IMG/VR virus record: IMGVR_UViG_3300034062_007749
Coordinates: 1 to 22,538 of that record
DNA from: a virus
Direction: 5' to 3' (one strand)
DNA length: 22,538 nucleotides
The notes below the pieces were generated by a model. That model saw only the letters and a list, made by a program, of their open reading frames with translations. It was not told the origin of the DNA and made no database searches. This document shows positions 17,964 to 22,049 of this stretch, in pieces; within the stretch, counting starts at the first letter, position 1; the number at the start of each line of letters is the position of its first letter. The position numbers and the translations under genes were made by a program.

Positions 17964-18293
17964 ATGGGTATTCTTATTGCAGAAAAGCGGCGTGATATGG
18001 GGATGACGCAACTGGAACTTGCGGAGCGCATCGGGGTACGACAGGAGACGATGTCACGCATCGAACGAGGGGCGCAGGTACCAAGCTACGTTGTCGCCAA
18101 AAGCATTGCAGAGGTATTAGGAGAGTCGAAAGCTTTCGAGCCTAGCGAGGGTAGCCATGAGCGATTTTTCCGCAACGCAAATCAGAGTCGAGCTTTCCGT
18201 TTCTTCAACATTGACGCTGTGAAAACGTTCCTAAGTGGTTCAGGCGTTGAGATTGACACAAGCAATATCTTTGGAGGAGGTGACAAGAGATGA
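17964..18293 (+). CDS. XRE-family helix-turn-helix transcriptional regulator
   Basis: ATG 17964 follows AAAGGGGG and gives 109 residues; the in-frame ATG at 17898 lies within promoter P2 and cannot be used from that transcript. Residues about 3-53 are a classic XRE helix-turn-helix: LIAEKRRDMGMTQLELAERI, then GVRQETMSRIERGAQVPSYV and AKSIAEVLG. The remaining ~55 residues (FRNANQSRAFRFFNIDAVKT) may serve dimerisation or ligand binding and match no domain I know. It is the first gene of an early operon, overlapping the DUF2800 start, so it may set the level of its own operon and of the other promoters with the ATCATATGAT palindrome. A lysogeny repressor role is possible but no integrase or divergent promoter is seen. 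Confidence 0.88.
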   Translation: MGILIAEKRRDMGMTQLELAERIGVRQETMSRIERGAQVPSYVVAKSIAEVLGESKAFEPSEGSHERFFRNANQSRAFRFFNIDAVKTFLSGSGVEIDTSNIFGGGDKR

Positions 18294-19318
18294 CGCAGAA
18301 ACACGCATTACTATCGCCAAGTGCAGCGTATCGGTGGATGGCTTGCCCCGCATCGATACAAGAGTGTCAAGAAGTGCCGTATAAAATGCCACGTGACACG
18401 AGCGCAGCAGAGTTAGGATCTAAGGTTCATGCAGCGGTTGAAAAAAAGTTTTCAGGGAAGGACGCAGAAGATGTTGAGGTGATTGAAAGCGCAGCGGACG
18501 ACTTTGTGGAGTATGTGAAGAGTTTCGATTTTGACACGGTGTACAGTGAAAAAACTCTATACATCAAGGAGCAACCCGATTGTTGGGGAACGGCGGATAT
18601 CGTAGGAGTAAAAGGCGACACGCTTTACATCATCGACTTGAAATATGGCATGTATCCCGTATCGGCGTTATGGAATCCACAATTGATGATATACGCTTGC
18701 GCCGCCTTGGATACACTGGATGGCTTGGAGCACGTGAAGGCGGTCACTATGATTATCTATCAACCACGATTAAAAAACATCGATGAATTCACGTTGTCAC
18801 GCAAATCGCTGGAAAACTGGAAGACAACAAAACTACTCCCATCCGCACAAATCGCACTAGGAAACTACGGAGAGTATGCGCTCGGAACGCATTGCCGATA
18901 CTGCCCCGCCAAAAGTGCATGCGTAGCACGAAACGGCGAAATTTTTGAAAGAGTCGTCGAGGCGTGTGGGCAGTATCGTGAGGTCACGGAAGATACGAAA
19001 TTGCAAATGATTGACAATATCATGAAACGTCACGATGAGTTATCGAAGTTTCTTAAAGAAGTTAAGGAATACGCACATTATGCGATGACGCAGGGTCATG
19101 AGTTTGAGAGCGTCAAGCTCGCAGACGGAAACAAAACAAGGTTTATCACAGACGTTGATGGATTAATTGAAAAGCTGAAAGAATTGGGAATTGATGAATC
19201 AGATTATAAAGATATGAAAAGCGTCGCATCGCTTGAAAAGATCGTCGGCAAAGACGTGCTACAGTTTTTCGTTGGCGAGCGAGCAGGTGCTCCTGTGGTG
19301 AAGAGGAGGATAAAATGA
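18290..19318 (+). CDS. DUF2800 protein, PD-(D/E)XK nuclease-like with iron-sulfur cysteines
   Basis: ATG 18290 overlaps the regulator stop and follows GGAGGAGG; 342 residues. The protein begins LLSPSAAYRWMACPASIQ and shows the RecB/Cas4-type layout: E41 and H47 (AELGSKVHAAVE), D103 in GTADIV, D116-L-K118 in YIIDLKYG, then NPQLMIYACA (Q131, Y135). C19 together with C202, C205 and C211 (HCRYCPAKSAC) could hold an iron-sulfur cluster as in Cas4 and AddB. DUF2800 genes commonly accompany DUF2815 genes in phage replication regions. The probable role is nuclease or strand processing in phage DNA replication or recombination; activity has not been shown for this protein. The C-terminal third (residues 220-340) is helical and charged. 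Confidence 0.85.
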   Translation: MTQKHALLSPSAAYRWMACPASIQECQEVPYKMPRDTSAAELGSKVHAAVEKKFSGKDAEDVEVIESAADDFVEYVKSFDFDTVYSEKTLYIKEQPDCWGTADIVGVKGDTLYIIDLKYGMYPVSALWNPQLMIYACAALDTLDGLEHVKAVTMIIYQPRLKNIDEFTLSRKSLENWKTTKLLPSAQIALGNYGEYALGTHCRYCPAKSACVARNGEIFERVVEACGQYREVTEDTKLQMIDNIMKRHDELSKFLKEVKEYAHYAMTQGHEFESVKLADGNKTRFITDVDGLIEKLKELGIDESDYKDMKSVASLEKIVGKDVLQFFVGERAGAPVVKRRIK

Positions 19319-19799: not shown

Positions 19800-20342
19800 A
19801 TGAAAACAACACTTAAAACAGTACGTTTCAGCTATGCGCATGTTTTTGAGCCACGAGGGTTTGACGGAAACACGCCGAAATACAGCGCATCGCTGTTGAT
19901 TGACAAAAGCGATGAAGCACTTGTAAAGCGAATCAAAGAGGCGTTACAGGTTGCGATTGACGAGGGTATCCCAAAAAAGTGGGGAGGGAAGAAGCCTGCA
20001 AAGCTTGACATTTGCTTGCGAGACGGCGACACGGAGCGACCAGAAGATCCAAACTATGCAGGGAAATACTACATCAACGCTAGCAATGTAAAGCAACCTA
20101 CGGTACTCAATCAATACGCTAAGCCAGCGACACAAGACGAGTTTTATAGCGGATGCTACGGCGTAGCGGTGGTGGACTTCTACCCGCACAGCCACAAAAA
20201 TATGAAACACGGCGTTTATGCGCAGTTGCTTGCGGTGATGAAAACGGAAGATGGCGAATCGTTCGGAGCGTCGGGGATCGACTTGTCGGAGCTAGCACAA
20301 TTCGCAGTGAAGCCAAGCGATACGGCGTTGGACTTCTTATGA
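19800..20342 (+). CDS. DUF2815 family single-stranded DNA-binding protein
   Basis: ATG 19800 follows AGGGGAG; 180 residues. The sequence fits DUF2815: VRFSYAHVFEPRGFDGNTPK, YSASLLIDKSDEALVKRIKE, then KYYINASNVKQPTVLNQYAK, EFYSGCYGVAVVDFYPHSHK and a Gly-Val-Tyr-Ala strand. The phage Enc34 member of this family is a known ssDNA-binding protein with an OB-type fold. The protein would coat single strands during phage replication. The expected acidic C-terminal end is mild here (LAQFAVKPSDTALDFL). The neighbouring DUF2800 gene supports a replication module. The long leader with six 10-bp repeats before this gene is unusual. Confidence 0.87.
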   Translation: MKTTLKTVRFSYAHVFEPRGFDGNTPKYSASLLIDKSDEALVKRIKEALQVAIDEGIPKKWGGKKPAKLDICLRDGDTERPEDPNYAGKYYINASNVKQPTVLNQYAKPATQDEFYSGCYGVAVVDFYPHSHKNMKHGVYAQLLAVMKTEDGESFGASGIDLSELAQFAVKPSDTALDFL

Positions 20343-21311: not shown

Positions 21312-21330
21312 AGAGGGGGTTCCCCCCTCT
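21312..21330 (+). other. Very stable GC hairpin without T-run, before the ThyX-like gene
   Basis: AGAGGGGG (21312-21319) and CCCCCTCT (21323-21330) form a perfect 8-bp stem around TTC. It is followed by TTCACACGG, not a T-run, then by the AAGGAG site of the next gene at 21341. It may slow transcription or protect or process the mRNA rather than end it. Confidence 0.65.
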
Positions 21331-21353
21331 TCACACGGCAAAGGAGTAAAAAA

Positions 21354-22049
21354 ATGGACATACGAATCGTACGATACAGTGATCCACTAAGAATAAACTT
21401 GGCGAGGAATGCAGCGATTTACTTGGGAAAAGAAGATCGGGATAACATCCGCCGCCCTCTAAACATCTTACGGATGGGGCACACGCTGGAGATCTTCCGT
21501 GGTGAATCCGTAGAGTTTTCATTCACAGGCGTATCGAAAGAGGTATACGACCACCTCACCACATACACGACGAGGAACATGCGTGTAACGTGCGGGAATC
21601 GTGCAAAACTAAGCGACGGATGGGTGATGCCAACGGATAAGATGAAAAATTCTTCATTCGTCGGTACCGTGATACAGGAGGTGCACAAGTGGTATCGTGA
21701 GCTGGCGCATAAAGAGTCACCGCAGGTGGCACGTTCGGCGATGCCGTGTGGAGCGACGATGAATGAGTTCGTGATACAATTTAATTTTGCAACGTTGATG
21801 CAGGCTGTTTTTCCGCAACGCATATGGACACATGGAGCACAAGGCAACACGAAGATTGTGGTGCAACGCATGTATGAATTATTGTTGGAGCATGATACAG
21901 AGTTATGGGAGGTTGCCCGTGATTGTTTTGGCGAAGGCGCAAACGAGTGGATGCAGGCGTATCGGAAACTGAAAAAAACGGATAGAGGGCAACTGTTGAT
22001 TGATGAAATCGTCGGAGAATTTGGGAAAACGAAAAATATGTGGGAGTGA
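21354..22049 (+). CDS. ThyX-like protein (flavin-dependent thymidylate synthase fold), signature motif lost
   Basis: ATG 21354 follows AAGGAG; 231 residues. The overall plan fits ThyX: LRMGHTLEIFRGESVEFSFT then GVSKEVYDHL, which lines up with the 'GH.s.lEh..ftf.ieGvSR....QL' region, and a second half with MPCGATMNEF, N144 and R156 (FNFATLMQAVFPQR) and GAQGNTK in place of AQ.EIR. But where ThyX enzymes have the RHR-x7-S motif for flavin and dUMP, this protein reads T70-Y71-T72, seven residues, then C80. So it may have another substrate, need a partner, or be inactive as a thymidylate synthase. Nucleotide modification for phage DNA is one idea. The homology is good but based on alignment by eye. 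Confidence 0.66.
   Translation: MDIRIVRYSDPLRINLARNAAIYLGKEDRDNIRRPLNILRMGHTLEIFRGESVEFSFTGVSKEVYDHLTTYTTRNMRVTCGNRAKLSDGWVMPTDKMKNSSFVGTVIQEVHKWYRELAHKESPQVARSAMPCGATMNEFVIQFNFATLMQAVFPQRIWTHGAQGNTKIVVQRMYELLLEHDTELWEVARDCFGEGANEWMQAYRKLKKTDRGQLLIDEIVGEFGKTKNMWE

What the first reader, a model, noticed from the sequence alone, without database searches (positions are those of the whole stretch)
21354..22049. ThyX-like protein with the RHR-x7-S motif replaced by TYT-x7-C
Flanking ThyX landmarks align without gaps (GVSK...L before, N144, R156, AQ after), yet the flavin/dUMP signature is fully replaced and the final EIR reads NTK. It could be a repurposed enzyme for another pyrimidine modification, a regulatory subunit, or a dead copy kept for binding. 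A Cys at the signature Ser position is notable.
Basis: partly seen in the sequence, partly recalled or inferred. Interest (0 to 1): 0.75.

Follow-up and report, generated by a model that had tools for sequence, protein, structure and literature searches.

The report
Hidden thymidylate synthase without ThyX signature
A phage gene that looked like a broken copy of the DNA-building-block enzyme ThyX belongs to an unrecognised enzyme family that many bacteria, having no other known thymidylate synthase, appear to use to make the thymine of their DNA.

Summary
Window 21354-22049 encodes a 231-aa ThyX-fold protein (Pfam Thy1 34.8 bits, cut-off 24.8; predicted structure matches only ThyX entries, Z 16) in which RHR-x7-S is gone. 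It is not a lone degenerate copy: none of 77 relatives has RHR-x7-8S, and they share their own residues (RGE, K..YDHL.TY[TS], R77, QR, mostly GAQ). The clade (99/96 support) occurs in phages, prophages and chromosomes.

The decisive clue is who carries it. Of all 41 held Alicyclobacillaceae genomes 31 have it, and exactly the other 10 have intact ThyA. Of 398 Bacilli 43 have it and 301 have ThyA, with no overlap; 41 of the 43 lack any other ThyX. Of 53 carriers, 43 lack intact dihydrofolate reductase and 13 lack thymidine kinase. Mobile copies sit beside ribonucleotide reductases, dUTPase, dCMP deaminase and dNMP kinases, and these can coexist with host ThyA.

Best reading: a working ThyX-type thymidylate synthase with a rebuilt active site, carried by this phage. 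Activity, flavin use and substrate are inferred, not shown.

The parts
21354..22049 (+). Gene for the signature-less ThyX-fold protein (231 aa), proposed thymidylate synthase of the 'TYT' family
   Evidence: relatives
21340..21346 (+). Probable ribosome-binding site AAAGGAG
   Evidence: sequence
21498..21506 (+). Codons of R49-G50-E51, invariant in 76 of 76 family members
21561..21569 (+). Codons of T70-Y71-T72, at the place of ThyX Arg-His-Arg in the ungapped alignment (T 75, Y 74, T/S 74 of 76)
21582..21584 (+). Codon of R77, invariant (76 of 76)
21591..21593 (+). Codon of C80, near the ThyX signature Ser; not conserved (G in 66 of 76)
21816..21821 (+). Codons of Q155-R156, invariant; R156 aligns with the conserved ThyX Arg (R174 of T. 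maritima)
18290..19318 (+). Exonuclease of the phage's DNA-metabolism region (PHROG 69)
19800..20342 (+). Gp2.5-like ssDNA-binding/annealing protein (PHROG 112)

Best explanation
The gene encodes a thymidylate synthase of the ThyX superfamily with a re-made active site. It belongs to a clade (here 'TYT family') that stands in for ThyA and canonical ThyX in many Bacilli and that phages carry beside ribonucleotide reductase to make dTMP for phage DNA. Shown: fold; clade; conserved new residue set; absence of intact ThyA and of other ThyX in most chromosomal carriers; frequent absence of DHFR and, in 13 of 53, of thymidine kinase; gene neighbours in dNTP synthesis. Inferred: that it methylates dUMP; that the carbon comes from methylene-THF with THF rather than DHF as by-product; that reduced flavin is the electron or carbon carrier; that R77, R83, R127, R156 and RGE/YDH take over from R78/R80/S88/R90.
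For: Fold: (two models, P0001 and L032). Profile link. Clade: 99/96, one origin in 98% of bootstrap trees. New signature in 76 members of 200 aa or more. Mutual exclusion: 41 Alicyclobacillaceae: TYT 31, intact ThyA the other 10; 398 Bacilli: TYT 43, ThyA 301, overlap 0 (Fisher 7e-31, not corrected for kinship); 41 of the 43 have no other PF02511 protein. Decay seen: complete genome G015 (A. mengziensis) has TYT plus a thyA remnant lacking the catalytic-Cys region, followed by a folA remnant. DHFR: 17 of 17 ThyA genomes tested, 10 of 53 TYT, 1 of 10 genomes with only other ThyX-superfamily hits. Thymidine kinase absent in 13 of 53 TYT genomes. Neighbours: class I RNR, flavodoxin (NrdI-like), TMP kinase and dCMP deaminase in L009; class II RNR downstream in L003/L004; NrdD, NrdG-like, dUTPase and dNMP kinase in heliobacterial elements. 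Purifying selection.
Against: No biochemical or genetic test. The residues said to bind dUMP and reduced flavin in ThyX (R78, R80, S88; PMC3498832 passages, PMC11940539 passages) are missing. Six of 16 bacterial genomes tested carry both a TYT locus and a ThyA match (G004-G007, G014; G019 a weak one), so exclusion does not hold for (pro)phage-type copies. Heliobacteria carry canonical ThyX plus several TYT copies. Ten of 53 TYT genomes keep DHFR and 40 of 53 keep thymidine kinase. Exclusion is clustered on the tree, so the number of independent events is small (at least the long and the short chromosomal groups).
Confidence: 0.8

Rival explanations
1. It is a ThyX-derived enzyme repurposed to make another modified pyrimidine (for example 5-hydroxymethyl-dUMP) for phage DNA.
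For: Active-site signature replaced; present in phages; a DNA N6/N4 methylase is nearby in 16 of 17 heliobacterial loci.
Against: The same clade is chromosomal, near mnmA (9 of 10 Alicyclobacillus loci examined) or an AdoMet decarboxylase gene (11 of 14 short-type loci), in genomes without another thymidylate synthase. A bacterium needs dTMP, not a rare base.
Confidence: 0.07
2. It is a catalytically dead ThyX kept for binding dUMP or as a regulatory subunit of RNR or of host ThyX.
For: Loss of residues that bind flavin and dUMP in ThyX; near RNR genes in mobile copies.
Against: 41 of 43 carriers in the Bacilli sample have neither ThyA nor another ThyX to regulate; invariant polar residues over wide divergence; dN/dS about 0.05-0.09.
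Confidence: 0.03
3. Carrier bacteria make dTMP by another, still unknown, enzyme or live on thymidine salvage, and the TYT family does something else in dNTP metabolism.
For: 40 of 53 TYT genomes have thymidine kinase; a 2018 review holds that species without ThyA and ThyX all carry tdk (PMC5954106 section 6).
Against: 13 of 53 TYT genomes have no thymidine kinase match, no intact ThyA and no other ThyX; an unknown enzyme would have to be lost and gained in step with ThyA against TYT.
Confidence: 0.08

Closest known systems
ThyX, flavin-dependent thymidylate synthase (PF02511, TIGR02170; T. maritima 1o26)
   Same: Fold over 185-190 residues at 2.3-2.7 A; GH, AR..LP, R and AQ landmarks; chromosomal carriers mostly lack ThyA and DHFR.
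   Different: No RHR-x7-8S (0 of 77); about 13% identity; new invariants RGE, K62, Y65, R77; long members have an N-terminal extension and mostly no Pfam Thy1 match.
ThyA, classical thymidylate synthase (PF00303)
   Same: Apparently the same cellular job; the two are mutually exclusive in the chromosomal surveys.
   Different: Unrelated protein; no PF00303 match in the family members scanned; ThyA genomes tested all keep DHFR (17 of 17).
PolB, UMP/dUMP methylase of Streptomyces cacaoi (4p5a/4p5b)
   Same: ThyX-fold relative named as UMP/dUMP methylase; Z 15.8 to the window model.
   Different: Substrate of the TYT family unknown; PolB residues not compared here.
Atypical ThyX of Corynebacterium glutamicum (3fnn, 3ge9)
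   Same: ThyX fold, Z 14.6 to the window model.
   Different: By its PDB title not required for thymidylate biosynthesis; it still carries RHR (alignment).
Other ThyX-superfamily groups of Bacilli without RHR-x7-8S (L066/L123-L125/L127-L129/L131-L133; L126/L130/L134; tandem L084)
   Same: Also lack the literal signature.
   Different: Recognised by PF02511; those scanned match TIGR02170, L066, L130 and L134 over its cut-off and the tandem L084 under it; outside the TYT clade in the tree (tandem halves on very long branches, placement unsure).

Membership tests
ThyX (PF02511 / TIGR02170) | ThyX fold | tested here: met
   Z 16.2 (window) and 14.6 (L032), next unrelated row Z 3.0 and 3.3
ThyX (PF02511 / TIGR02170) | Pfam Thy1 gathering score | tested here: met
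   window 34.8 bits against 24.8; but of 10 relatives scanned only L012 passes, L017 is at 21.3 and 8 have no Thy1 match
ThyX (PF02511 / TIGR02170) | TIGR02170 thyX equivalog cut-off (87.9 bits) | tested here: not met
   window no match; best of 14 other members scanned is 23.9 bits
ThyX (PF02511 / TIGR02170) | Signature RHR-x7-8S | tested here: not met
   0 of 77 proteins
ThyX (PF02511 / TIGR02170) | dUMP-binding residues R78, R80, S88, R90 (PMC3498832) | tested here: not met
   R78, R80 and S88 replaced in the ungapped register; R83 (75 of 76) may stand in for R90; register uncertain
ThyX (PF02511 / TIGR02170) | Carrier genomes lack ThyA | tested here: met
   0 of 53 carriers in the two surveys have intact ThyA; but 6 of 16 genomes with TYT loci have a ThyA match, at least four of them with (pro)phage-type copies
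ThyX (PF02511 / TIGR02170) | Dihydrofolate not produced (DHFR dispensable) | tested here: inconclusive
   genomic proxy only: intact DHFR in 10 of 53 carriers against 17 of 17 ThyA genomes
ThyX (PF02511 / TIGR02170) | FAD bound; dUMP to dTMP with methylene-THF; homotetramer | not testable with these tools
   needs purified protein
ThyA (PF00303) | PF00303 domain with catalytic Cys | tested here: not met
   no PF00303 match in the window protein or in 10 relatives
PolB-type UMP/dUMP methylase | Substrate UMP/dUMP for antibiotic synthesis | not tested
   fold match only

The most novel reading that the evidence does not exclude
The TYT family is a mechanistically third thymidylate synthase: with the arginine that holds anionic reduced flavin (R78 in ThyX) and the dUMP arginines gone, it makes dTMP with a different cofactor, a differently bound flavin or another carbon donor, on the old ThyX scaffold.
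Probability: 0.25. Interest if true: 0.95.

Novelty: new variant of a known kind. Interest (0 to 1): 0.85.

Why it matters
Thymidylate synthase is essential, and only two classes are recognised. A 2018 review (PMC5954106, section 6) explains genomes without ThyA and ThyX by thymidine salvage through tdk. Here a family that profile libraries mostly miss accounts for such genomes, including 13 without tdk, and suggests that the 'universal' ThyX signature can be dispensed with. It would name a hypothetical protein in many Alicyclobacillus, Brevibacillus, Hydrogenibacillus and other genomes, give a new active site to compare with a drug target, and show phages and chromosomes exchanging an essential enzyme. 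A single complementation assay can test it.

Tried and rejected
Lone degenerate copy: rejected, 77 relatives share a new signature. Catalytic Cys in place of Ser: rejected, Cys in 4 of 76. Database names: NCBIfam gave none for the window protein and PHROGs only one weak hit to a family of unknown function. Sequence search of the PDB with P0001 or the family profile found no ThyX; only fold comparison did. Plasmids: no match. Phages: one record, annotated hypothetical protein.

Chromosomal neighbours (mnmA-like, AdoMet decarboxylase) gave no functional hint, only evidence of a stable chromosomal place; the mnmA name is by sequence appearance, no profile was run on it. PF02511 over whole genomes missed the window gene itself and the long members, so its absence means no canonical ThyX, not no ThyX-fold protein. 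hhalign and spacing disagree on the register at the signature; no residue-level structural alignment was available. Ligand modelling was not possible.

Literature: searches. No paper in that library holds both thyX and Alicyclobacillus. Read: passages of PMC3498832, PMC9931769, PMC4913046, PMC10297869, PMC11940539; passages plus all of section 6 of PMC5954106. Two papers on ThyX motifs were not held. Subscription papers and preprints were not searched, so novelty is not proven.

Full report
WHAT IS THERE. The window is a 22,538-base virus record; the gene in question lies near its right end, 21354-22049 on the plus strand, behind AAAGGAG. Its 231-aa product hits Pfam Thy1 at 1.9e-8 and nothing in NCBIfam. 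AlphaFold2 with 31 rows gives pLDDT 86.5. Foldseek's 50 listed best PDB matches are all ThyX-fold entries, the first being 1o26, and VIA gives Z 16.2 to 13.8 for 47 ThyX-fold entries and then drops to 3.0. A long chromosomal relative, L032, behaves the same: pLDDT 88.2, Z 14.6 at best, and 3.3 for the first unrelated row.

THE SIGNATURE. Residues 70-72 are TYT where ungapped alignment puts RHR, and residue 80 is Cys. Profile comparison with nine ThyX sequences (probability 96, E 3e-9) aligns the C-terminal half well but slides the signature by four residues, so the exact counterpart of RHR is unsettled. In no register is there Arg-His-Arg, and no family member has RHR-x7-8S (0 of 77). The flanking landmarks need two one-residue insertions.

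THE FAMILY. Scans found 8 viral loci, one phage record and 52 genome loci; 15 more chromosomal genes were fetched. Some are one contig seen in two collections (L007/L020, L008/L030), and a few heliobacterial copies are cut short. Over 76 members of 200 aa or more (L060 dropped), R7, D10, N31, R34, R49-G50-E51, K62, Y65, R77, G81, P93, P131, L148, F153 and Q155-R156 are invariant, and D66, H67, T70, Y71, R83, A162 and Q163 nearly so. Position 80 is G in 66. In a tree of 66 rows the 39 TYT rows form one side of a branch (99/96; 98% of bootstrap trees), with two main groups, each holding phage and chromosomal members. Selection on the window gene is strongly purifying (dN 0.051, dS 1.01 to L002; 0.053 and 0.62 to L003).

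WHO CARRIES IT. In the family of Alicyclobacillus ALC3 (G013), all 41 held genomes were searched. The TYT profile matches 31. ThyA matches 11: the 10 others, plus a remnant in G015, a TYT carrier. Canonical ThyX is in one TYT genome (G024); the only other PF02511 genome, G040, holds ThyA and an atypical tandem ThyX. The G015 remnant is a 201-aa frame lacking profile positions 131-213 and any PCH motif, followed by a cut-off folA frame: a decayed thyA-folA pair in a complete genome that carries TYT. In an even draw of 398 Bacilli, TYT is in 43, ThyA in 301, overlap 0. Of the 43, 15 show PF02511 hits: 13 are the TYT gene itself (overlapping coordinates) and 2 (G024, G366) have another ThyX. Of 54 genomes with neither TYT nor ThyA, 49 have PF02511 proteins and 5 have none. 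Fisher values (9e-10; 7e-31) ignore kinship. Against this, six of 16 bacterial genomes tested have a ThyA match and a TYT locus (G004-G007, G014; G019 weakly). L012 lies beside an integrase-like gene, and L010, L011 and L037 have RNR genes nearby; I read these four as (pro)phage copies. Heliobacteria have canonical ThyX and several TYT copies in element-like loci.

WHAT GOES WITH IT. DHFR (80 genomes): ThyA genomes 17 of 17; TYT 10 of 53 intact plus one remnant; genomes with only other ThyX-superfamily hits 1 of 10. This is the pattern expected if the enzyme yields THF, as ThyX does, and not DHF, as ThyA does (general knowledge of the two enzymes). Thymidine kinase: missing in 13 of 53 TYT genomes (G012, G017, G044, G045, G047, G049, G055, G105, G280, G288, G313, G346, G389), all without intact ThyA and without another ThyX; salvage by this route cannot feed them. 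One of them, G017, is Hydrogenibacillus schlegelii (L048), which I recall as an autotroph. Mobile copies: class II RNR follows TYT in L003 and L004, and its start is seen in L002; class I RNR lies near it in L001, L009, L010, L011 and L037. In L009 the order is TMP kinase (score at the cut-off), RNR large chain, RNR small chain, flavodoxin, TYT, dCMP deaminase. In 17 heliobacterial loci, gene clusters that I read as NrdD (16), N6/N4 methylase (16), dNMP kinase (15), NrdG (13) and dUTPase (12) recur; Pfam confirms NrdD, a radical-SAM NrdG-like protein, dUTPase, the methylase and dNMP kinase for the representatives scanned from L014, L017 and L021. All three RNR classes, and enzymes that make dUMP and use dTMP, thus surround it.

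MECHANISM. Most likely: dUMP plus methylene-THF plus reductant gives dTMP plus THF on a ThyX scaffold. Lost are R78, which faces N1 and C2=O of reduced flavin (PMC11940539 passages), and R78, R80, S88 as dUMP contacts (PMC3498832 passages). The serine is not essential in ThyX (serine-to-alanine enzyme still active, PMC4913046 passage). Kept or replaced: H43 (67 of 76), R127 (75), R83 (75), R156 (76), Q163 (74), with RGE, YDH and R77 as candidates for the new pocket. These assignments are inference.

COMPARISON AND VERDICT. It works like ThyX (inferred) and has its fold (predicted structures), but fails ThyX's own signature and the equivalog cut-off, so I file it as a new variant, not as ThyX proper. 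A 2018 review explains genomes without ThyA and ThyX by tdk (PMC5954106 section 6); no paper in the searched library joins thyX and Alicyclobacillus. For the window phage itself the case is by family: its gene is in the short group, with phage relatives followed by class II RNR; the window ends 489 bases after the gene, so its own further downstream neighbour is not seen.

Noticed in passing
L151 (G036:C6:1-6500), 2247-2475 minus: The thyA of this Alicyclobacillaceae genome is split by a group I intron (Rfam RF00028, 71.2 bits).
   Followed up: partly
L084 (G040) and many Bacilli genomes: A ~500-aa tandem ThyX-ThyX fusion without RHR-x7-8S in L084, strong first half and weak second half, in many genomes that lack ThyA; possibly another unusual thymidylate synthase.
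   Followed up: partly
L066, L123-L125, L127-L129, L131-L133 and L126, L130, L134: Two further ThyX groups of Bacilli with altered signatures (QWWKYV...SSRRY and RQDMRARHA..ERSLRY), over the TIGR02170 cut-off where scanned.
   Followed up: partly
L014-L018, L021, L024, L026-L029, L036, L043, L046, L054, L058, L060: Heliobacteria carry many copies of a phage-like element with anaerobic RNR, dUTPase, TYT, DNA methylase and dNMP kinase, some TYT copies truncated.
   Followed up: partly
G075, G108, G124, G141, G213: Five Bacilli genomes matched neither ThyA, PF02511 nor the TYT profile; incomplete genomes, salvage or yet another enzyme.
   Followed up: no
window 21313-21329: GAGGGGG TT CCCCCCTC inverted repeat just upstream of the gene, a possible terminator or attenuator.
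   Followed up: no
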